DNA from: Alcanivoracaceae bacterium
GTDB taxonomy: Bacteria; Pseudomonadota; Gammaproteobacteria; Pseudomonadales; Alcanivoracaceae
Length of the DNA: 64,000 nucleotides
Direction: 5' to 3'
NCBI GenBank assembly: GCA_002706085.1
Contig: PAJO01000006.1
Location: forward strand, 19,160 to 83,159
Shown here: positions 7,331-49,987 of the stretch, piece after piece
How positions within the stretch are numbered: position 1 is the first letter of the stretch
How the letters are laid out: every line of letters starts with the position of its first letter
Position numbers and translations under genes: made by a program
The notes under the pieces: model-generated
The model's input: only the letters and a program-made list of their open reading frames with translations
Database searches by the model: none
Told to the model about the DNA's origin: nothing

Positions 7331-7510
7331 AGTTGCAAGTTGAAAGTTCAAAGTTGAAAAGCGCGTGAGGGCGCGTTGCTACCCATTAACCGATATCGCC
7401 GCGCAGCAGGGTGGATAGAGCATAAGACGCGTTGCTTGCGGCGCGGTGAATGAGGTGGCCGGTTGGCGCCTGTCTTGATCGCGCCTTTCAACTTTGAACT
7501 TTCAACTTGC
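7331..7510. repeat. Inverted pair of heptamer arrays, AGTTGAA type
   Basis: Four heptamers at 7331-7358 (AGTTGCA, AGTTGAA, AGTTCAA, AGTTGAA) face their inverse complement at 7487-7510. Three units match perfectly, so the arms could pair over more than 20 bases. The enclosed 128 bases show no gene. The right arm ends about 25 bases before the EamA start codon, so the structure is in or near that gene's leader. Confidence 0.85.
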
Positions 7511-7534
7511 TCCTCTCAAACCAAGGAGAACGAC

Positions 7535-26190: not shown

Positions 26191-26296
26191 GGCGCTAGTG
26201 TACGCCACAATGGTTGCAAAACGAAACCAAATAAGGTTTTATAACGCAACTAAATTTGGTCGGCTTTGTCTGGAAGGATGAAGTGCCTGGTGATGG

Positions 26297-26385
26297 GTCG
26301 GACGACGGACGTCTGAAGTCGGGCGCCATAACCCCGGCCCTTGGTTACTGTTTTTGCGTCCGACTTCAGACGTCAGACGTCCGAC
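26297..26385. repeat. Inverted pair of GTCGGAC heptamer arrays
   Basis: The units GTCGGAC, GACGGAC, GTCTGAA, GTCGGGC (26297-26324) face GTCCGAC, TTCAGAC, GTCAGAC, GTCCGAC (26358-26385). The two arms are nearly complementary with a 33-base loop. The structure occupies the divergent promoter region between the HxlR regulator and the OYE gene and ends about 30 bases before the OYE start, so it should fold in that mRNA leader. Confidence 0.85.
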
Positions 26386-26415
26386 CTCTTTGTTGCATTT
26401 ATCGGGAGAGTACCT

Positions 26416-27526: not shown

Positions 27527-27561
27527 AGCTGCTAGCTACGAGCTATGGGCTATGAGCTATG
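27527..27561. repeat. Heptamer array, AGCTATG type
   Basis: Five units (AGCTGCT, AGCTACG, AGCTATG, GGCTATG, AGCTATG) start two bases after the OYE stop codon. The 27526-27878 gap is made of this array, two terminators, a REP palindrome and two more heptamer runs, with no gene. Confidence 0.85.
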
Positions 27562-27603
27562 AGTAAAAGCACGCGGGGCCGGTTTTCTGGCTCTGCAATG
27601 ACA

Positions 27604-27638
27604 GAGGCCGCGTCCATGGTTGGGTGCGGCCTTTTTCG
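27604..27638 (+). terminator. Rho-independent terminator of the OYE gene
   Basis: The stem GAGGCCGCGTCC/GGGTGCGGCC ends in TTTTT. It belongs to the recurrent AGAGGCCGCGCCC terminator family seen at 27789, 44504, 44675, 47118 and 47385. Confidence 0.8.
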
Positions 27639-27653
27639 TTGGTGTAGATGGTT

Positions 27654-27725
27654 TTGTGGGGGCGGCGGTTCCACTGTGAAAAACGCCGTGCCACGGTTAT
27701 CGCGGTCGAACGACCGCTCCCACAG
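27654..27725. repeat. REP-type palindrome bounded by TGTGGG/CCCACA
   Basis: Begins TTGTGGGGGCGGCGGTTCCA and ends GGTCGAACGACCGCTCCCACA. The parts are those of the element at 22028-22084 but reordered, with a longer middle. Confidence 0.7.
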
Positions 27726-27740
27726 TGTGGCTTTCCCGGG

Positions 27741-27761
27741 TTCGCGTGTTGCGTGTAGCCT
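27741..27761. repeat. Short heptamer run, GTTGCGT type
   Basis: Three units, TTCGCGT, GTTGCGT and GTAGCCT, the same word family as between apaG and apaH. Confidence 0.55.
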
Positions 27762-27788
27762 GATGCGGTCGCGAAGCGACCCCAAATG

Positions 27789-27824
27789 AAGAGGCCGCGC
27801 CTGGAATCCGGGCGCGGCCTCTTT
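27789..27824. terminator. Bidirectional terminator before the MFS gene end
   Basis: AAGAGGCCGCGCC pairs perfectly with GGCGCGGCCTCTT, with A-rich and T-rich flanks, between convergent transcription units (OYE on plus, MFS on minus). Confidence 0.85.
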
Positions 27825-27855
27825 GGTTTTCGTTGAACGACGGCGTCAGTCCGCG

Positions 27856-27883
27856 TTTCAACTTTGAACTTTAAACTTTCAAC
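27856..27883. repeat. Heptamer array overlapping the MFS stop codon
   Basis: Four units (TTTCAAC, TTTGAAC, TTTAAAC, TTTCAAC), the inverse of the AGTTGAA type. The last unit contains the MFS gene's TGA, so the array forms the 3' end of the coding frame. Confidence 0.8.
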
Positions 27884-29186
27884 TCTCTTCGCCCTGATCT
27901 TCCAGCGACTGGTTGATGGCCAGGGCCAGCAGGGTGCAGATGACGCCGGAGAGCAGGTAGACCGTCACCGACAGCAGGCCGAATTTGGCGGACAGGCCCA
28001 GGGCCACCAGGGGGGCGAAGGCAGCGCCGAACAGCCAGGCGAAGTCAGACGTCAGGGCGGCGCCGGTGTAGCGGAAGCGCGGGGCGAAGTTCGCGGTCAC
28101 CGTGCCGGAGGCTTGCCCGTAGGACACCCCGAGCAGGGCAAAGCCCAGCAGGATGAAGGTGTCCTGCATGGCGGGACTGCCGCCCATCAGCAGTGGGGTG
28201 AGCAGGCTGAACACGCCGATCACGGCAGCCAGGGCGCCCACGGTGGTGCGCTTGCCGATACGGGCGGCGATCCAGCCGGAGCCAATGGTGGCCAGAATCC
28301 CCACGAAGCCGCCTAAAATCTGTACAGTGAGGACTTCGGCGGTAGTCTGACTGCCCTGAAAGGCAATCCAGGACAGCGGGAAGATGGTGACCAGATGGAA
28401 CAGGGCATAGCTGGCCAGGGCGGCAAAGGAGCCGATAAAGATGTTGTAACCCTGGGTGCGTACCATTTCTGTGGTGCGGATGGGTTCCAGTTCGCTTTCT
28501 TCCATGGCTTCGGTGTATTCCTCGCCCAGCACCAGCCGCAGGCGGGCAAACAGGGCGACCACATTGATGGCGAAGGCCACGAAGAACGGATAGCGCCAGC
28601 CCCAGCCGACGAAATCCGGGGCGCTCAGGCTGTTATACAGGAACAGGAACAGGGCGCTGGCAATCACGAAGCCGATGGGCGCGCCCAGTTGCCCCAGCAT
28701 GGCGTACCAGCTGCGTTTCTCTTTCGGCGCGTTCAGCGCCAGCAGCGAGGGCAGACCGTCCCAGGAGCCACCGAAGGCTATGCCCTGCATGATGCGGAAC
28801 AGGGCGAGCAGGGCAATGGCATGGGCACCCAGCTTTTCATAGCCGGGCAGGAACGCCATGCCGCAGGTGGCGGTGCCGAGCAGGAACAGGGCCGCAGTGA
28901 GTTTGACGCCGCGACCCCAATGGCGCTGAATCCACATGAACAGGGCGGTGCCGAAGGGGCGCGCCACAAAGGCCAGCGAGAACAGGACGAAGGAATACAG
29001 CAGGCCCTGAAGCTGACCGGTAAACGGGAAGAAGACCTGAGGGAAGATCAGGACAGAGGCGATCCCGTAGACAAAGAAGTCGAAATATTCGGAGGTGCGG
29101 CCGATGACCACGCCCACCGCGATTTCATTGGGAGCCACCGGAGCGTGGCTCTGGCCCTGTATCGGGGCCTGGAGGGTGTTTGACAT
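27879..29186 (-). CDS. MFS transporter, metabolite:H+ symporter (MHS) type
   Basis: A 12-helix major facilitator of about 435 residues. The segment GRTSEYFDFFVYGIASVLIFP (helix 1) and the loop FVARPFGTALFMW (helix 2 to 2-3 loop) are hallmarks of the MHS group, which includes proline/betaine ProP, citrate and shikimate carriers. The substrate is not predictable. A further ATG at 29222 would add 12 polar residues; the shorter start is favoured because the upstream ATG lies inside a TTGAC-N4-GTCAA dyad. The stop codon lies within a heptamer repeat. Confidence 0.82.
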   Translation of the reverse strand: MSNTLQAPIQGQSHAPVAPNEIAVGVVIGRTSEYFDFFVYGIASVLIFPQVFFPFTGQLQGLLYSFVLFSLAFVARPFGTALFMWIQRHWGRGVKLTAALFLLGTATCGMAFLPGYEKLGAHAIALLALFRIMQGIAFGGSWDGLPSLLALNAPKEKRSWYAMLGQLGAPIGFVIASALFLFLYNSLSAPDFVGWGWRYPFFVAFAINVVALFARLRLVLGEEYTEAMEESELEPIRTTEMVRTQGYNIFIGSFAALASYALFHLVTIFPLSWIAFQGSQTTAEVLTVQILGGFVGILATIGSGWIAARIGKRTTVGALAAVIGVFSLLTPLLMGGSPAMQDTFILLGFALLGVSYGQASGTVTANFAPRFRYTGAALTSDFAWLFGAAFAPLVALGLSAKFGLLSVTVYLLSGVICTLLALAINQSLEDQGEES

Positions 29187-43649: not shown

Positions 43650-44447
43650 ATGAGCACAGGCACCATTCTCGACAAGATTATTGCCCGCAAGCAGGAAGAA
43701 ATCGCGGTGGGCAAGAACAACTACTCGCTTGGCGACCTGCAATCCATGGCGGAGAACCAGGGCAAGGCCCGTGGTTTTGCCAAGGCCCTGTTCCAGCGTA
43801 TTCGCGACAAGCAGCCTGCGGTAATTGCTGAAATCAAGAAAGCGTCCCCCAGCAAAGGGGTGATCCGCGATGATTTCGATCCGGTGTCGATTGCCCGCAG
43901 TTACGAAGCCAATGGGGCAGCGTGCCTGTCGGTGCTCACCGACCAGGATTTTTTTCAGGGCCATGAAGACTACCTGCGTGCTGCCCGCAATGCGGTAAGC
44001 CTGCCGGTGATTCGCAAGGATTTCATGATCGACCCATGGCAGATTTTCGAATCCCGCGCCATGGGGGCCGATGCGGTGTTGCTGATCGTGGCAGCGCTGT
44101 CCGATGACCAGCTGAACGAGCTTTACCATGCTGCCCAGCGCGCCGGCTGCGACGTGTTGGTGGAAGTGCATACCCAGCAAGAGCTGGAGCGGGCCGTGGC
44201 CCTGAATGCCGAGCTAATCGGCATCAATAACCGCAACCTGCATACCTTCGAGACCAGCCTCAGCACCACTCTGGCCCTGGCCGAGCAAGCCCCGGCAGAC
44301 CGGTTGATCATCACCGAAAGTGGTATCCACACCGCCGATGATGTGAAGCTGATGCGCAGCAACAGCATCCACTCTTTCCTGGTAGGCGAAGCCTTTATGC
44401 GCGAAGAGGATCCGGGGAAGGCGTTGAAGGCGCTGTTCTTCAGTTGA
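43650..44447 (+). CDS. trpC: Indole-3-glycerol-phosphate synthase
   Basis: TrpC closes the indole ring from CdRP. The 265-residue TIM barrel has [16 protein letters not shown] (catalytic Lys, about 56-71), [12 protein letters not shown] (about 117-128), [12 protein letters not shown] and [12 protein letters not shown]. It is not fused to TrpF. The stop codon lies inside a heptamer array (AGTTGAC, AGTTGAA and so on), so the last codons and the stop are shared with repeat DNA. Confidence 0.96.
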
Positions 44448-44503
44448 CAGTTGAAAGTGGACAGTTGTCAGTTGCGCGGCTGAACGTCGTCAGGTGTTCA
44501 AAA

Positions 44504-44545
44504 TAAAGAGGCCGCGCCCGGGCGTCTGGGTGCGGCCTTCCTGTT
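44504..44545 (+). terminator. Terminator of trpEGDC
   Basis: The AAAGAGGCCGCGCCC stem with GGGTGCGGCCTT and a T-containing tail lies about 55 bases after the trpC stop. Confidence 0.75.
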
Positions 44546-44591
44546 TGTGAAAAGCACCTCTGCTTCGCTGTTGTGGGAGCTTGCGGGCAAG

Positions 44592-44645
44592 TTCTCATCC
44601 TTCGGGCCGCACTCCGTACGTACTCCACTACGTTACGTTCCTGCG
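44592..44645 (-). repeat. Dispersed intergenic repeat, copy 3 (diverged)
   Basis: The inverse reads AGGAACGTAACGTAGTGGAG then GTGCGGCCCGAAGGATGAG, a shorter and diverged version of copies at 3373 and 25581. Confidence 0.55.
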
Positions 44646-44674
44646 GCGGCTTTGTATAAACGTATGTCATAAAC

Positions 44675-44712
44675 AAAGAGGCCGCGCCCAGGTTTGGGCG
44701 CGGCCTCTTTGC
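44675..44712 (-). terminator. Terminator of crp
   Basis: AACAAAGAGGCCGCGCCCA pairs with TGGGCGCGGCCTCTTTG. It is strong in both directions and closest to the crp stop on the minus strand. Confidence 0.8.
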
Positions 44713-44776
44713 TTTCAGTAAGCAGCCAACCTCGTCCGCGACGCTGTCAACTGTCCACTTTCAACTGTCAACTATC

Positions 44777-45689: not shown

Positions 45690-46106
45690 ATGAAAGCAGT
45701 GGTCCAATGGCAGGGCGAGGCCTGCTACGAAGGTCAGACCGAAAGCGGCCATCAGGTACTGATGGACGGCCCGCCAGATCATGGTGGCCAGAATCGTGGC
45801 CCACGCCCCATGGAGACGTTGCTGTTGGGTGTCGGGGGGTGTTCTTCCTTTGATGTGGTGCATATTCTCAAGAAGTCTCGTCAGGATGTGACCGACTGCC
45901 GTTGCGAACTGACCGCCGAGCGCGTCGATGATGTTCCTGCGGTGTTCAGCAAGATTCATCTGCATTTCATCGTTAGCGGTAATAACCTGAAAGAAGCCCA
46001 TGTAAAACGGGCGGTGGAGTTGTCTGCCGAGAAGTATTGCTCGGCCAGCATCATGCTGACCCGGGGTGGTGTCGAGATCACCCATAGTTATAGCATTGAG
46101 GCCTGA
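45690..46106 (+). CDS. OsmC family protein (peroxiredoxin-like)
   Basis: A 138-residue OsmC/Ohr-fold protein. The redox cysteines are GVGGCSSFDVVHILKK (Cys near 52) and the second one in SAEKYCSAS (near 115). The family reduces organic peroxides, though the YhfA-type subgroup this resembles has no defined substrate. AGGAG lies six bases before the chosen ATG; the longer upstream frame was excluded. It is divergent from crp and followed by speD, as in Pseudomonas. Confidence 0.88.
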   Translation: MKAVVQWQGEACYEGQTESGHQVLMDGPPDHGGQNRGPRPMETLLLGVGGCSSFDVVHILKKSRQDVTDCRCELTAERVDDVPAVFSKIHLHFIVSGNNLKEAHVKRAVELSAEKYCSASIMLTRGGVEITHSYSIEA

Positions 46107-46243
46107 TTCCGGTCAGGCTGGGAATTCCGGCGCCATGCCGGGGTGAAAGGTGGGGCGTTGAGTCGCCTCGCAGACAGGTAGCCGCATCAATGCGGTGGTG
46201 TGTTTTGTTCTAGTGTGGCGGTAAGCGCCCATGGGGTACGGCT

Positions 46244-47050
46244 GTGGTGAAAGATCCCAATCCCAAGATTACGGTTCACGGTTTCAACAACCTGACCAAA
46301 TCCTTGAGCTTCAATATCTTCGATATTGCGTATGCAAAGACTGAGCAGCATCGTCAGGAGTACATCGAATATATTGATGAGCTGTATAACGCCGAGCGTC
46401 TCACCGAGATTCTCACCAATGTGACCAAGATTATTGGCGCCAATATTCTTAACGTGGCCCGTCAGGATTACGATCCGCAGGGGGCCAGCGTGACCATGCT
46501 GATTGCCGAGCATGAAACCCCGCCAGATGGCACTGACTGGGACGAGGAAGCCCCGGGTCCGTTGCCGGACACGGTGGTGGCGCACCTGGACAAGAGCCAC
46601 GTGACGGTCCACACCTACCCGGAATCCCATCCGGATAACGGTATTTCCACGTTCCGTGTGGATGTGGATGTATCGACCTGTGGGGTGATTTCACCACTGC
46701 GTGCCCTGAACTACCTGATCCACAGTTTCGATTCCGATATCGTGACGGTGGACTACCGCGTGCGCGGTATGACCCGCGATCTGGATGGCACCAAGCACTA
46801 CATTGATCATGACATCAATTCCATCCAGAACTTCCTCACGGAAGATACCCAGAACGCCTATCAGATGATCGACGTGAATGTGTATCAGGAGAACATCTTC
46901 CATACCAAGATGCTGCTGAAAGACTTCGATATCGACAACTATCTGTTTGGTGCTGGTAGCGACGAGTTTGACCAGGAAGAACTCGATTCGATTGAAGAAC
47001 GCCTCAAGACCGAGATGCTGGAGATTTTTTACAGCCGGAATCTTGGTTGA
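46244..47050 (+). CDS. speD: S-adenosylmethionine decarboxylase proenzyme
   Basis: SpeD makes decarboxylated SAM for spermidine synthesis. The 268-residue proenzyme is of the E. coli type ([17 protein letters not shown] opening). The self-cleavage site that yields the pyruvoyl group is Lys117-Ser118 in [18 protein letters not shown], followed by the catalytic [10 protein letters not shown]. The start is GTG, with a second GTG as the next codon. A large nested palindrome follows. Confidence 0.95.
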
Positions 47051-47117
47051 AGAGCAGTGAATAGTTAACAGTTAACAGTGAATAGCTGCGCGATCAGCGC
47101 AGCGGCCAGCTGGAAGT

Positions 47118-47155
47118 AAAGAGGCCGCGCCCATAACCTGGGTGCGGCCTCTTTG
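47118..47155 (+). terminator. Terminator of speD
   Basis: AAAGAGGCCGCGCCCA pairs with TGGGTGCGGCCTCTTT, followed by GTTTGT. Confidence 0.8.
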
Positions 47156-47384
47156 TTTGTGACAACATATATTTCGAAGCCGCTGTAGGAGCTTGCCTGC
47201 AAGCGATCCGAGCCTTGGCGAGGAAATGAGTTTCGAGTTACGAGAAGCGAGTTTCGAAAGGCAAAACCTCAAACCTCGTGCTTGGTTGTTGTCTATTGAT
47301 TTTCGAAACTCGCTTCTGGAATTCTTACCTCGTCAAGGCTCGGATCGCTTGCAGGCAAGCTCCTACGGCAACTTCGCAGCAAAC

Positions 47385-47421
47385 AAAGAGGCCGCCCCCA
47401 ATCTATTGACGCGGCCTCTTT
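47385..47421 (-). terminator. Terminator of coq7
   Basis: CAAAGAGGCCGC pairs with GCGGCCTCTTTG around a longer loop. The A-run on the left becomes the T-run for minus-strand transcription coming from coq7. Confidence 0.75.
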
Positions 47422-47485
47422 GTTCTCAGTACCTGATGACGTTTGGCGCGACGCTGTTAACTGTTCACTATTCACTGTTAACTAA

Positions 47486-48148
47486 TCAGATCCGATAAGT
47501 CGCAAACGTCATCACCTTGCTCATCAATGTCATGGCGTGGCGGATGGGCGGCGGCAGGTCGGCGCCGCCGGCGTCTTTGGCGGTGACGGCATGCTTGAGC
47601 TCGTCGGTGCGCATTTGCTCAAGGATGGCTCGGGTGCGCAGGTCGCTTTCCGGCACCTGATAAAGGTGGGATTCCAGGTGCTTCACCACCTGGTTTTCGG
47701 TTTCCGAGACAAACCCCAGACTCCAGCGATCACCGATCAGGCCGGCGGTGGCACCCATGGCATAGCTCATGGCATAGAACAGCGGGTTCAGTTTGCTTGG
47801 TGCTCCGCCCAGTTCGCGAATGCGCTCTTCACACCAGGCCAGATGGTCTTCTTCTTCTTTGGCGGCTTCTTCCATGGCGTGACGGATATGCGGCAGGCTG
47901 GCTGTGCTGGCCTGGCCCTGGTACAGCGCCTGGGCACACACTTCACCGGTATGGTTGATGCGCATCAAACCCATCACGTGGCGACGCTGATCGCTCGGCA
48001 GGCTGCCGGGCTGGGCGGTGCCGCCCGGGCTATCCGGTGCGGCAGTCGGAGCACGTTCAGCTTGTATGGTACCTGGCGTCAGCGTGCGCAGGGCGTTGTC
48101 TGCTCTGGCCAGCAATCGGTCCAGAGGAGAAAGGCGGCGTTCTGTCAT
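47486..48148 (-). CDS. coq7: 3-demethoxyubiquinol 3-hydroxylase Coq7
   Basis: A 220-residue di-iron carboxylate enzyme (UbiF-replacing Coq7/CLK-1 type) that hydroxylates demethoxyubiquinol in ubiquinone synthesis. Ligand motifs are [16 protein letters not shown] (about 64-79), [18 protein letters not shown] (ExxH, about 91-108) and the later [17 protein letters not shown]-like segment ([11 protein letters not shown]). The N-terminal 50 residues are a low-complexity Pro/Ala stretch absent from short homologues. It is convergent with speD and divergent from the AAA ATPase gene. Confidence 0.92.
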
Positions 48149-48224
48149 GGGCTGTCCACAGCAGTGTTTTGAAAGATGATCATGTTAGCATACCGGCATC
48201 CTCGCCCTGTGAAGAATGATAACA

Positions 48225-49697
48225 ATGAGTGATCTGAACGACCTGCGCATGCTGCTGGATTCCCGCTACCCGATTGTGGTGATCGAAACCTGGGAGGAAT
48301 TACGGGCGTTGGATTTGATCCGGCGTCTGGGAATGAAAGAAGGGCGCCCGGTGTTTGCCTGGAATGCGGTGGATGGCCTGCGCAGGCTGGAGTTTGATGA
48401 TGTGCCCAGCCAGAAGCACACCATTGAGCCGGATGCCATGCTTGGCCAGATTCGTGGTACCAGCCAGCCCGGGATTTATGCCCTGTGTGATATCCATCCG
48501 TTCCTGGACGGCGAGCCGAAGAATGTCCGGCTGATCAAGGAAATCGCGCTCCACCACGAGCGGTTACAGCATACGCTGGTGCTGATCAGTCACCAGTTCA
48601 CGATTCCCGCTGAAGTGCGCCGATACTGCACCCGCTTCAGCCTGTCCATGCCGGATGAGAAACAGCTGGAGCATATTGTCCAGGACGAAGCCCGTCGATT
48701 TAAAAAGGAAAAGGGCGAGCGGGTTCGCGCCAACCGGGAATCACTGGACCGGTTGGTTCGTAACCTGCGCGGCATGAGCGCAGACGATGCCCGCAAGCTG
48801 GCCCGGGGCGCCATCATCCAGGATGGCGCCATCACCGAAGACGATCTGCCGGAGGTCAACAAGGCCAAGTTTGCCCTGATGGAGATGGATGGCGTGCTCA
48901 GCTACGAGTACGACACCGAAAGTTTTGCCCATGTTGGCGGTCTGGACGGCCTGAAGCAGTGGCTTGGCAAGCGAGAGAAAGCCTTCCACGGGGATGCGGG
49001 CATCGACAGCCCTCGTGGCGTGATGCTGGTGGGGGTACAGGGCGGCGGCAAGAGCCTTGCAGCCAAGTCGGTGGCCGGCCTGTGGGGGCTGCCGTTGTTG
49101 CGGCTCGATATGGGGGCGATATACAACAAGTTTTTCGGAGAATCCGAGCGCAATGTCCGTGAAGCCCTGACCATGGCAGAAACCATGTCGCCCTGTGTGT
49201 TATGGATCGATGAAATTGAAAAAGGCATTGCTGTAGGGGACAACGATGGCGGGACGTCGCGCCGGGTGCTGGGCACCTTGCTGACCTGGATGGCCGAGAA
49301 CACCAGCAAGGTGTTTATGGTGGCCACGGCCAACGACATCGAGCGTTTGCCGCCGGAGCTGATTCGCAAAGGGCGTCTGGATGAGATTTTCTTTGTAGAT
49401 CTTCCGTCGCCGCCTGTCCGCGAGATTATCTTTCGGATTCATTTGCAAAAGCGGCATCAGGATGCAGAGCGTTTTGACTTGCCGACGCTGGCCGAACACA
49501 GTGACGGCTTTACCGGTGCTGAAATCGAACAGGCGGTGGTGGCGGGATTGTACAGCGCCAGTGCAGCGGGAACGGTACTGGATCAGGCCATGCTGGAAGC
49601 CGAGCTGGCCGCCACGGTTCCCTTGTCAGTCACCATGGCAGAGCCATTGGCGAGGCTGCGGCACTGGTGCCAGAACCGGGCGGTGAGTGCGGGCTGA
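48225..49697 (+). CDS. AAA+ ATPase, Ycf46-like
   Basis: A 490-residue AAA protein. The N-terminal half (1-230) resembles the Ycf46 family: RYPIVVIETWEELRALDLI and the ISHQFTIPAEVRRY strand. The ATPase core has Walker A GVQGGGKS (270-277), Walker B CVLWIDEIEKG (324-334), an SRH Asn/Arg segment (TANDIERLPPELIRKGRLDE) and a C-terminal lid. Ycf46 in cyanobacteria is linked to inorganic carbon use; the proteobacterial role is unknown. The second of two nearby ATGs was chosen. It ended one base from the convergent sensor gene before a MITE inserted. Confidence 0.85.
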   Translation: MSDLNDLRMLLDSRYPIVVIETWEELRALDLIRRLGMKEGRPVFAWNAVDGLRRLEFDDVPSQKHTIEPDAMLGQIRGTSQPGIYALCDIHPFLDGEPKNVRLIKEIALHHERLQHTLVLISHQFTIPAEVRRYCTRFSLSMPDEKQLEHIVQDEARRFKKEKGERVRANRESLDRLVRNLRGMSADDARKLARGAIIQDGAITEDDLPEVNKAKFALMEMDGVLSYEYDTESFAHVGGLDGLKQWLGKREKAFHGDAGIDSPRGVMLVGVQGGGKSLAAKSVAGLWGLPLLRLDMGAIYNKFFGESERNVREALTMAETMSPCVLWIDEIEKGIAVGDNDGGTSRRVLGTLLTWMAENTSKVFMVATANDIERLPPELIRKGRLDEIFFVDLPSPPVREIIFRIHLQKRHQDAERFDLPTLAEHSDGFTGAEIEQAVVAGLYSASAAGTVLDQAMLEAELAATVPLSVTMAEPLARLRHWCQNRAVSAG

Positions 49698-49702
49698 TTT
49701 AG

Positions 49703-49987
49703 GGAGCCTCTGAATAACTCCTTGCATGCTCAGCGTGTCCAGAAGCGTGCAGCTGTTGTGTCTTGTCTCGACGGTAAGGGTGGCTCCCTTTCCTAGAGGC
49801 AAGGCGCAACAGATGGGCGCTTCAGGCCGCGCCCTTCGGGTCTTTCAGGCTGGCCCGCACTCGTTGTTGCGCTTTTTTGATGGATGGACATACACCTTCA
49901 AAACCGCGCCCCTCTTTACCTTTTGGCCCATAGAGGGGGCGAGCCAGCCTGAAAGACTGAGCACGCAAGGAGTTATTCAGAGGCTCC
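49703..49987. mobile_element. IS5-type MITE, 285 bp, with TTAG target duplication
   Basis: The terminal inverted repeats GGAGCCTCTGAATAACTCC match perfectly over 19 bases and then continue imperfectly (CTTGCATGCTCAG versus CTTGCGTGCTCAG). TTAG flanks both ends (49699-49702, 49988-49991), which fits the YTAR duplications of the IS5 group. Internal hairpins include TCTTTCAGGCTGGC (about 49839) with GCCAGCCTGAAAGA. There is no transposase. It sits between the AAA ATPase stop and the sensor stop; the right TTAG supplies the sensor's TAA stop codon (as TTA on plus). Confidence 0.85.

What the first reader, a model, noticed from the sequence alone, without database searches (positions are those of the whole stretch)
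47057..47482. Russian-doll palindrome: four nested inverted element pairs between speD and coq7
Heptamers, terminator hairpins, REP units and a second heptamer type are each mirrored in order around a 37-base centre. Random accumulation would not keep mirror order. Either each palindromic element inserted into the loop of the previous one, or one half was copied by an inverted duplication. The outer terminators serve the two convergent genes.
Basis: seen in the sequence. Interest (0 to 1): 0.68.

Follow-up and report, generated by a model that had tools for sequence, protein, structure and literature searches.

The report
Flipping palindrome cassettes at gene ends
The nested palindrome between speD and coq7 is one dispersed palindrome sitting inside another, and the outer one belongs to a family of about 50 small DNA cassettes, mostly at gene ends, in Alcanivorax bacteria that have repeatedly flipped or been swapped in place between sister species.

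Summary
The nested palindrome is real (fold z -18.7). It is two palindromic elements, not four layers stacked one by one. The outer shell is a copy of a dispersed ~157-bp Alcanivorax element: about four or five TKRAYAR heptamers, CKKCGCG, a terminator-like hairpin, then the mirror image. I list 52 places in this genome and 49 in its sister. Arms sit at gene 3' ends (81 of 93) and carry inward stop codons in all three frames (38 of 48). The inner shell is a REP-heptamer2-REP composite also found at other loci. The second terminator is an inverted copy of the first.

The unexpected part is behaviour. In ~191 kb of sister-species alignment, enriched for these loci, five 148-171-nt inversions were found, all bounded by heptamer arms. 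At about seven of 40 comparable loci the whole element is replaced by another subfamily. speD-coq7 alleles show inversions at several shells. Best mechanism: a stop-plus-terminator gene-end element whose inverted arms promote template-switch or recombinational flipping and exchange. Function and mechanism are inferred; anatomy, dispersal and flipping are shown.

The parts
46244..47050 (+). speD (S-adenosylmethionine decarboxylase), upstream convergent gene; stop TGA 47048-47050
   Evidence: ORF; Pfam AdoMet_dc 56.3 bits, cut-off 25; orthologs at the same place
47055..47085 (+). left outer heptamer arm (TKRAYAR units), stops in all three frames reading inward
47086..47092 (+). CTGCGCG inner boundary motif of the gene-end element
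   Evidence: family motif
47118..47154 (.). terminator-like hairpin T1
   Evidence: family structure
47184..47223 (+). left GTAG-type REP
47223..47264 (+). left second-type heptamers (GAGTTTC/GAGTTAC/GAGAAGC)
47265..47300 (.). asymmetric centre, reversed relative to species G004 and G008
47301..47317 (-). right second-type heptamers
47328..47367 (-). right REP
47385..47421 (.). terminator-like hairpin T2, inverted copy of T1
47447..47453 (-). CGCGACG boundary motif (CGTCGCG read inward)
47454..47484 (-). right outer heptamer arm, stops in all three frames reading inward
47486..48148 (-). coq7, downstream convergent gene
   Evidence: ORF; Pfam COQ7 143.3 bits, cut-off 23.5; orthologs
44442..44776 (.). 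second nested gap of the same order: TTGACAG heptamers - terminator - REP - terminator - heptamers
27527..27888 (.). third gap with heptamer - terminator - REP - terminator - heptamer order, with different words on the two sides
7333..7512 (.). related heptamer-armed palindrome with a different word (AGTTGAA)

Best explanation
The gap holds one dispersed palindromic element inside another. SHOWN: the outer shell is a copy of a ~157-bp family, [TKRAYAR x4-5]-CKKCGCG-~28 nt-GC-rich hairpin-~28 nt-mirror, with tens of copies per Alcanivorax genome, mostly between convergent genes, whose stop codons often lie inside the heptamers. SHOWN: the inner shell (REP-heptamer2-centre-heptamer2-REP, ~190 bp) is itself a recurrent unit. 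SHOWN: between species these elements are found flipped, at more than one shell, and replaced in place by other copies. INFERRED: the element works as a gene-end cassette. The arms give each incoming gene stop codons in all three frames (7 nt per unit shifts the frame by one each repeat), and the central hairpin ends transcription from both sides. INFERRED: the inverted arms promote flipping and exchange, most simply by replication template switching between arms or by recombination between them. INFERRED: at speD-coq7 a REP composite entered near the hairpin, the hairpin was duplicated in inverted form, and G015 and G009 later collapsed back to one hairpin by recombination between the two copies.
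For: Motif TKRAYARCKKCGCG: 37, 37, 52 and 30 hits in 4 genomes against 0, 1, 2 and 2 for the backward control. Covariance model R1: hits in 23 of 57 genomes, i.e. 17/17 of the genus, all 5 searched of genus g3, 1 of g5, none in the other 34. Closely similar unpaired spacers at four different G008 loci. Position: 81 of 93 arms have a gene 3' end on the outer side; stop codon inside the arm in 42 of 81, within 7 nt before it in 17. Stops in 3 frames inward in 38/48 arms, outward in 3/48, shuffled 24%. Flips: 5 inversions, 93-97% identical inverted, all heptamer-bounded. Replacements. Nested-shell flips: W v G004 centre fwd 84 / inv 178; G008 v G004 spacers 11/90 and REPs 59/206; G002 v A. hongdengensis interior 8.8/70.5. 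T2 inverted copy of T1. The G015 gap is shorter by exactly 267 nt, the spacing of the two hairpins.
Against: The simple terminator scan found one site where 0.5 is expected, so termination rests on hairpin shape and a U-rich tail only. Of 48 arms, 10 stop only two frames; 12 of 93 arms adjoin gene starts and 22 of 81 stops lie more than 7 nt before the arm. Other heptamer families (AGCTACA, CACGCAA) show no stop codon when read by eye, yet have the same period and one AGCTACA-type element flipped, so stop supply does not explain period 7. Arms agree at positions 3 and 7 equally in and out of register and not at position 2; recent arm-to-arm copying would have matched position 2 too. One covariation measure (further pair types) was no higher than in shuffles (477 of 500 as high). 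No transposase or recombinase for the outer family was identified or sought beyond Y1_Tnp. The C170 locus swapped spacers but not the hairpin loop, so it is not a single simple flip. Some flips could be replacement by a copy in the other orientation.
Confidence: 0.7

Rival explanations
1. A dedicated site-specific recombinase acts on the heptamer arms or the CKKCGCG ends, flipping the interior and exchanging cassettes between loci, as an invertase or recombinase-mediated cassette exchange would.
For: In-place replacement with divergence starting about at the arm edge; flips at five loci between sisters; two kinds of end, often CTGCGCG on one side and CGTCGCG on the other.
Against: Arms of different words (TTAACAG, TTGATAA, AGCTACA) flip or swap, which a sequence-specific enzyme would hardly tolerate; inner shells bounded by REPs also flip; no enzyme was sought or found.
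Confidence: 0.15
2. The elements are neutral: heptamer slippage plus quasipalindrome template switching makes and homogenises arms, and they survive at gene ends only because insertions elsewhere are removed.
For: Heptanucleotide repeats are a common class attributed to polymerase slippage (Mrazek 2007 as described in PMC4679880); template switching between inverted repeats homogenises arms and inverts spacers (PMC8604942, abstract in search listing); expansion to 15 CAGTGAA units against 5 in the sister.
Against: Nearly fixed ~157-bp size with a conserved hairpin at many loci; inward stop bias, 38/48 against 3/48 outward; uniform word changes in the units of both arms at speD-coq7.
Confidence: 0.25
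3. The arms are selected to pair, as a long RNA stem or DNA cruciform carrying the hairpin (for mRNA 3'-end protection or supercoil relief).
For: 16 of 43 predicted pairs have compensatory changes; 72 double-change cells against 37.5 +/- 5.4 shuffled and 4-9 when slid; position 5 agrees 0.82 in register against 0.69 out of register; single-hairpin gap folds at z -10.9.
Against: Positions 3 and 7 agree equally out of register; position 2 does not covary; further pair types no higher than shuffled; in convergent genes a transcript ending at the hairpin never contains the second arm.
Confidence: 0.2
4. One reading: four palindromes inserted one after another into each previous loop.
For: Two-layer alleles exist.
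Against: Layers 1+2 and 3+4 each recur elsewhere as units; T2 is an inverted copy of T1.
Confidence: 0.05

Closest known systems
TAACTGA heptamer direct repeats of Beggiatoaceae, cyanobacteria and Bacteroidetes (MacGregor 2015, PMC4679880: abstract and passages seen)
   Same: Seven-base tandem units of nearly the same letters (TAACTGT read outward here); stop codons in all three frames; intergenic, sometimes overlapping ORF ends.
   Different: There mostly upstream of start codons in the main genome studied, with one inverted repeat among 170 sets; here inverted pairs at nearly fixed spacing around a hairpin, mostly at stop codons, with several words, flipping and swapping.
REPIN / GTAG-tagged REP dimers (Bertels and Rainey 2011, PMC3116915; Di Nocera 2013, PMC3733652: passages seen)
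   Same: The inner shell has two inverted GTAG-type REPs; Y1_Tnp (RAYT-like) genes are present in the genome; REPs near 3' ends can supply a TAG stop.
   Different: The inner unit is ~190 bp with heptamer arms inside the REPs; the outer element has no REP.
MITEs with internal repeats, e.g. BrickBuilt of Porphyromonas gingivalis (PMC4596501, abstract and outline seen)
   Same: Dispersed, short, palindromic ends, intergenic, tandem repeats.
   Different: Here the terminal repeats themselves are heptamer arrays and the core is terminator-like; no transposase or target duplication shown.
Spacer inversion and arm homogenisation by template switching at inverted repeats (PMC8604942); plastid hairpin inversions (search listings only)
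   Same: Inverted repeats with a flipping spacer.
   Different: Here a multicopy bacterial family flips, and whole elements are also exchanged.

Membership tests
[quoted passage not shown]
REPIN (inner shell) | REP class is many-copy in the genome | tested here: met
   68 strand-wise matches of the REP-bearing query, about 48 distinct places; some are heptamer rather than REP matches
REPIN (inner shell) | cognate RAYT transposase | tested here: inconclusive
   7 Y1_Tnp matches, one at C54:37908 near REPs at C54:36.5-38.4k; cognate pairing not shown
MITE (outer element) | dispersed multicopy element with terminal inverted repeats | tested here: met
MITE (outer element) | target-site duplication / clean empty site | tested here: inconclusive
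   one gap has the element in G015 and a REP pair in G000; no clean empty site or duplication seen in the few places looked at
MITE (outer element) | ends shared with an autonomous transposon | not tested
   no search made
TAACTGA-type heptamer repeats | tandem 7-nt units with stops in three frames | tested here: met
TAACTGA-type heptamer repeats | location just upstream of start codons | tested here: not met
   81 of 93 arms have a gene 3' end outside them
Intrinsic terminator | GC hairpin followed by U tract that terminates transcription | tested here: inconclusive
   conserved hairpin; simple scan 1 found, 0.5 expected; no transcript data
Rfam families | score above gathering threshold (46000-48500 scanned) | tested here: not met
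   only a sub-threshold MIR841 hit, 53.4 against 200 bits

The most novel reading that the evidence does not exclude
Alcanivorax genomes carry a system of about 50 or more invertible and exchangeable gene-end cassettes: heptamer arms of any word act as recognition or switching sites by which the stop-plus-terminator core is flipped and traded between loci, possibly by dedicated machinery, so that gene ends are modular and faster evolving than the genes they end.
Probability: 0.2. Interest if true: 0.85.

Novelty: new variant of a known kind. Interest (0 to 1): 0.68.

Why it matters
It gives a multicopy natural assay for how short inverted repeats flip and exchange in a bacterial chromosome: five flips and about seven replacements are already visible between two sister species whose shared genes are 94% identical. 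It also suggests that gene ends (stop codon plus terminator) can spread and be traded as a unit. If the arms and hairpin work as inferred, this is a natural counterpart of a synthetic all-frame-stop plus bidirectional-terminator insulator. It further warns that intergenic regions in this genus cannot be aligned as if they were simply inherited vertically.

Tried and rejected
Considered and rejected: (1) post-stop arrays owned separately by each gene. Arms also occur in tandem and divergent gaps as inverted pairs and the element has a nearly fixed size. (2) Pure base-pairing covariation as the cause of matching arms: in-register agreement clearly exceeds out-of-register only at position 5. (3) A simple phylogenetic gain of the nested form: on the 52-gene tree nested and single alleles are scattered, although the Coq7 protein of W is 95-97% identical to those of G004, G008, G009 and G012 against a mean protein identity of 86-88% over the window's genes, so gene exchange at the locus is likely and the order of events is not settled. 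(4) Rfam identity.

Led nowhere: literature searches for Alcanivorax heptamers or intergenic palindromes and for stop-codon-bearing palindromes or MITEs with terminators; one sister flank had no match in G000 and another gave a diverged region without the element.

Dropped rows and limits: one search mishandled minus-strand loci and was superseded. In one search, 23 of 53 sources gave no element pair; of the 30 that did, L264 (115 nt), L270 (111 nt, not a real element by its sequence), the N-bearing L248 and L261, and L278 and L287 were left out of alignment A1 (24 used, 8 of them alleles of the speD-coq7 locus). The arms counted include orthologs from several species and are not independent. 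L060-L064 duplicate other loci. In one search at most 52 candidates per genome were scored, at most 150, so copy numbers are lower bounds; 52 and 49 are my listing of distinct places. In one search, 9 of 49 sister elements were not compared (8 without an ortholog in the sequence held, 1 without held flank). Of its 5 'inverted', C1:52735 is weak (0.74 against 0.65, different arm words) and is not among the five, which are the other four plus one AGCTACA-type element. Its 15 'different/unclear' include about 7 replacements read by eye, the speD-coq7 and 44448 nested gaps, and others with indels or N. In one search seven further pairs were flagged as inverted but score within the noise. G014 contains N runs that inflate its repeat counts. 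Gene calls come from my own script and some starts are uncertain.

Full report
OBSERVATION. The mirrored layers are present as described. The 435-nt gap between speD and coq7 (Pfam AdoMet_dc and COQ7) folds far better than its shuffles (z -18.7).

WHERE. Relatives identified through named contigs of identical length place the window in the genus Alcanivorax; neighbouring genus g3 holds Alloalcanivorax contigs. The sister of the window's genome is G015 (94% nt identity over 52 shared genes).

THE OUTER SHELL IS A DISPERSED ELEMENT. Period-7 arrays are frequent in this genome: 32 in 464 kb at 17 of 21 lag-7 matches, none in the shuffle; periods 6 and 8-15 give six in all, four of them at period 14, while periods 4 and 5 do not exceed shuffles. 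Among 235 intergenic regions of 60 nt or more, 13 hold an inverted pair with heptameric arms: 5 convergent, 6 tandem, 2 divergent. The type found at speD-coq7 has words TKRAYAR and inner motif CKKCGCG. That 14-mer pattern occurs 37, 37, 52 and 30 times in G000, G015, G008 and G014, against 0, 1, 2 and 2 for the backward control. Of 53 sources searched for a complete pair, 30 gave one and 28 of these have inner ends 99-104 nt apart (the choice of pair mildly favoured 101 nt), giving an element of about 157 bp with a GAGGCCGCG...CGCGGCCTC hairpin in the middle in nearly all aligned copies. A covariance model from 24 of the 30 finds it in 23 of 57 genomes: 17 of 17 of this genus, all 5 searched of genus g3, 1 of genus g5, and none in the other 34. 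The model was built from Alcanivorax copies, so more distant forms could be missed. At E <= 1e-5 there are 103 strand-hits in G000 and 97 in G015, by my listing 52 and 49 distinct places. Four different G008 loci carry closely similar, unpaired spacers, so at least these are dispersed copies and not independent inventions. Sampled loci outside the family show almost no period-7 arrays: 0 in 20 Marinobacter/Oleiphilaceae loci (216 kb), 0 in 12 Pseudomonas loci (122 kb), 1 in 18 Halomonadaceae loci (184 kb), against 13 in 4 Alcanivorax loci (43 kb, around speD and so somewhat enriched).

WHERE IT SITS AND WHAT IT SUPPLIES. Of 40 loci fetched by the motif, classed 30 as convergent, 5 tandem, 2 divergent and 3 in-gene or edge. 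Of 93 distinct arms (orthologs from several species included), 81 have a gene 3' end on their outer side and 12 a 5' end; the stop codon ends inside the arm in 42 of the 81, within 7 nt before it in 17, and further out in 22 (gene calls by my own script). Read inward, 38 of 48 arms have stops in all three frames and 10 in two; read outward only 3 of 48 have three; shuffled arms reach three in 24%. In the window both arms stop all three frames inward and two frames outward.

THE INNER SHELL. REPs, second heptamers and centre form a ~190-bp unit with matches of 90 nt or more at other loci in G002, G004, G008, G009 and G012, plus two loci of G000. The REP-bearing query has 68 strand-wise matches in the genome, about 48 distinct places, and the genome has 7 Y1_Tnp (RAYT-like) matches, one beside a REP cluster. 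The two terminators are inverted copies (0.79-0.88 inverted, 0.69-0.71 direct; four alleles), while the flanking spacers are not mirrored. G015 has the same flanks with one hairpin; the difference, 267 nt, equals the spacing of the two hairpins. G009's single hairpin carries the loop seen in G012's T2. Collapse by recombination between T1 and T2 is therefore likely, though the reverse order is not excluded.

SHELLS FLIP. Among the four nested alleles the between-terminator spacers and the centre have different relative orientations: G004 and W share spacer orientation but have opposite centres (84 forward, 178 inverted); G008 has the spacers and REPs reversed relative to G004 (11/90 and 59/206) with the same centre (110/60). 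In the single-hairpin form the whole interior is reversed between G002 and A. hongdengensis (8.8/70.5; pairs that are not clear homologues reach about 44, and seven others flagged by the script lie in that noise). A wider scan of 32 orthologous regions and 746 species pairs gave 21 segments at five loci; several of these are arm-only matches or may be independent insertions.

SISTER-SPECIES TEST. I compared G015 elements with their orthologous places in G000. Of 49, 40 could be compared: 20 same orientation, 5 inverted by threshold, 15 other. A separate BLAST scan of about 191 kb of collinear matches held (some overlapping, enriched for these loci) found five inverted stretches of 60 nt or more at 85% identity or better: 148-171 nt, 93-97% identical inverted against 0.69-0.78 direct, all bounded by heptamer arms, four of the TKRAYAR type and one AGCTACA type. 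At about seven loci (by eye) both species have an element but of different subfamilies (for example TTAACAG against TTGACAG or TTAATAA). Of the 14 flanks there, 10 are 95-100% identical, one 93% and three 84-87%, and divergence starts at or near the arm edge. One further place has the element in G015 and a REP pair in G000.

MECHANISM. The arms covary strongly by most measures (72 double-change cells against 37.5 shuffled; slid structures 4-9), though further pair types do not exceed shuffles. Most of this is uniform word choice within an element: agreement at positions 3 and 7 is the same in and out of register, only position 5 shows clear extra in-register matching (0.82 against 0.69), and position 2 matches its expectation (0.60 against 0.58). 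Whole-element replacement explains why both arms change together. Flipping between short inverted repeats by template switching is a described route to spacer inversion (PMC8604942, abstract seen only). A recombinase is possible but none was identified. Terminator function is inferred: the hairpin is conserved but the simple scan is uninformative.

KNOWN RELATIVES. MacGregor 2015 (abstract and passages) describes TAACTGA heptamers with all-frame stops, in the main genome mostly before start codons and almost never inverted. Di Nocera 2013 (passages) reports REPs close to 3' ends that supply TAG stops. Bertels and Rainey 2011 (passages) define REPINs. Klein 2015 (abstract and outline) describes a MITE with a minisatellite. 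In the held open-access library I found no description of this element in the listings of searches; subscription journals are mostly outside it.

VERDICT. The nested palindrome is one instance of a recurrent architecture, and the stronger finding is a family of gene-end palindromes that flip and are replaced in place.

Noticed in passing
44448-44776 and orthologs in G008, G009, G012, G002, G006: In these species the gap holds an extra short ORF that looks by eye like a chorismate-mutase-type gene, lying between heptamer/terminator elements; it is absent in the window and in G015, and the G006 copy has an in-frame stop. Genes may come and go between elements.
   Followed up: no
L383 2332-2479 against L389: An AGCTACA-type heptamer palindrome is inverted between sister species (95% over 148 nt), so other word families flip too.
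   Followed up: partly
L304 (G015) against L264 (G000): A CAGTGAA array has 15 perfect units in one sister and 5 in the other.
   Followed up: no
window 49703-49987 and the L037 gap: Inverted repeat GGAGCCTCTGAATAACTCCTTGC at both ends of a convergent gap; five other species show a 956-nt gap there, possibly an insertion sequence of which the window keeps a remnant.
   Followed up: no
L036 left REP, L032 right REP: A module around TTCGCTCCGC...CGTTCC interrupts one REP, on opposite sides in the two species, in step with the outer flip.
   Followed up: partly
window 26209-26415: A GACGTCG-type heptamer palindrome in a divergent gap is shared with G002 but absent from the sister G015, suggesting exchange of whole intergenic alleles between species.
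   Followed up: no
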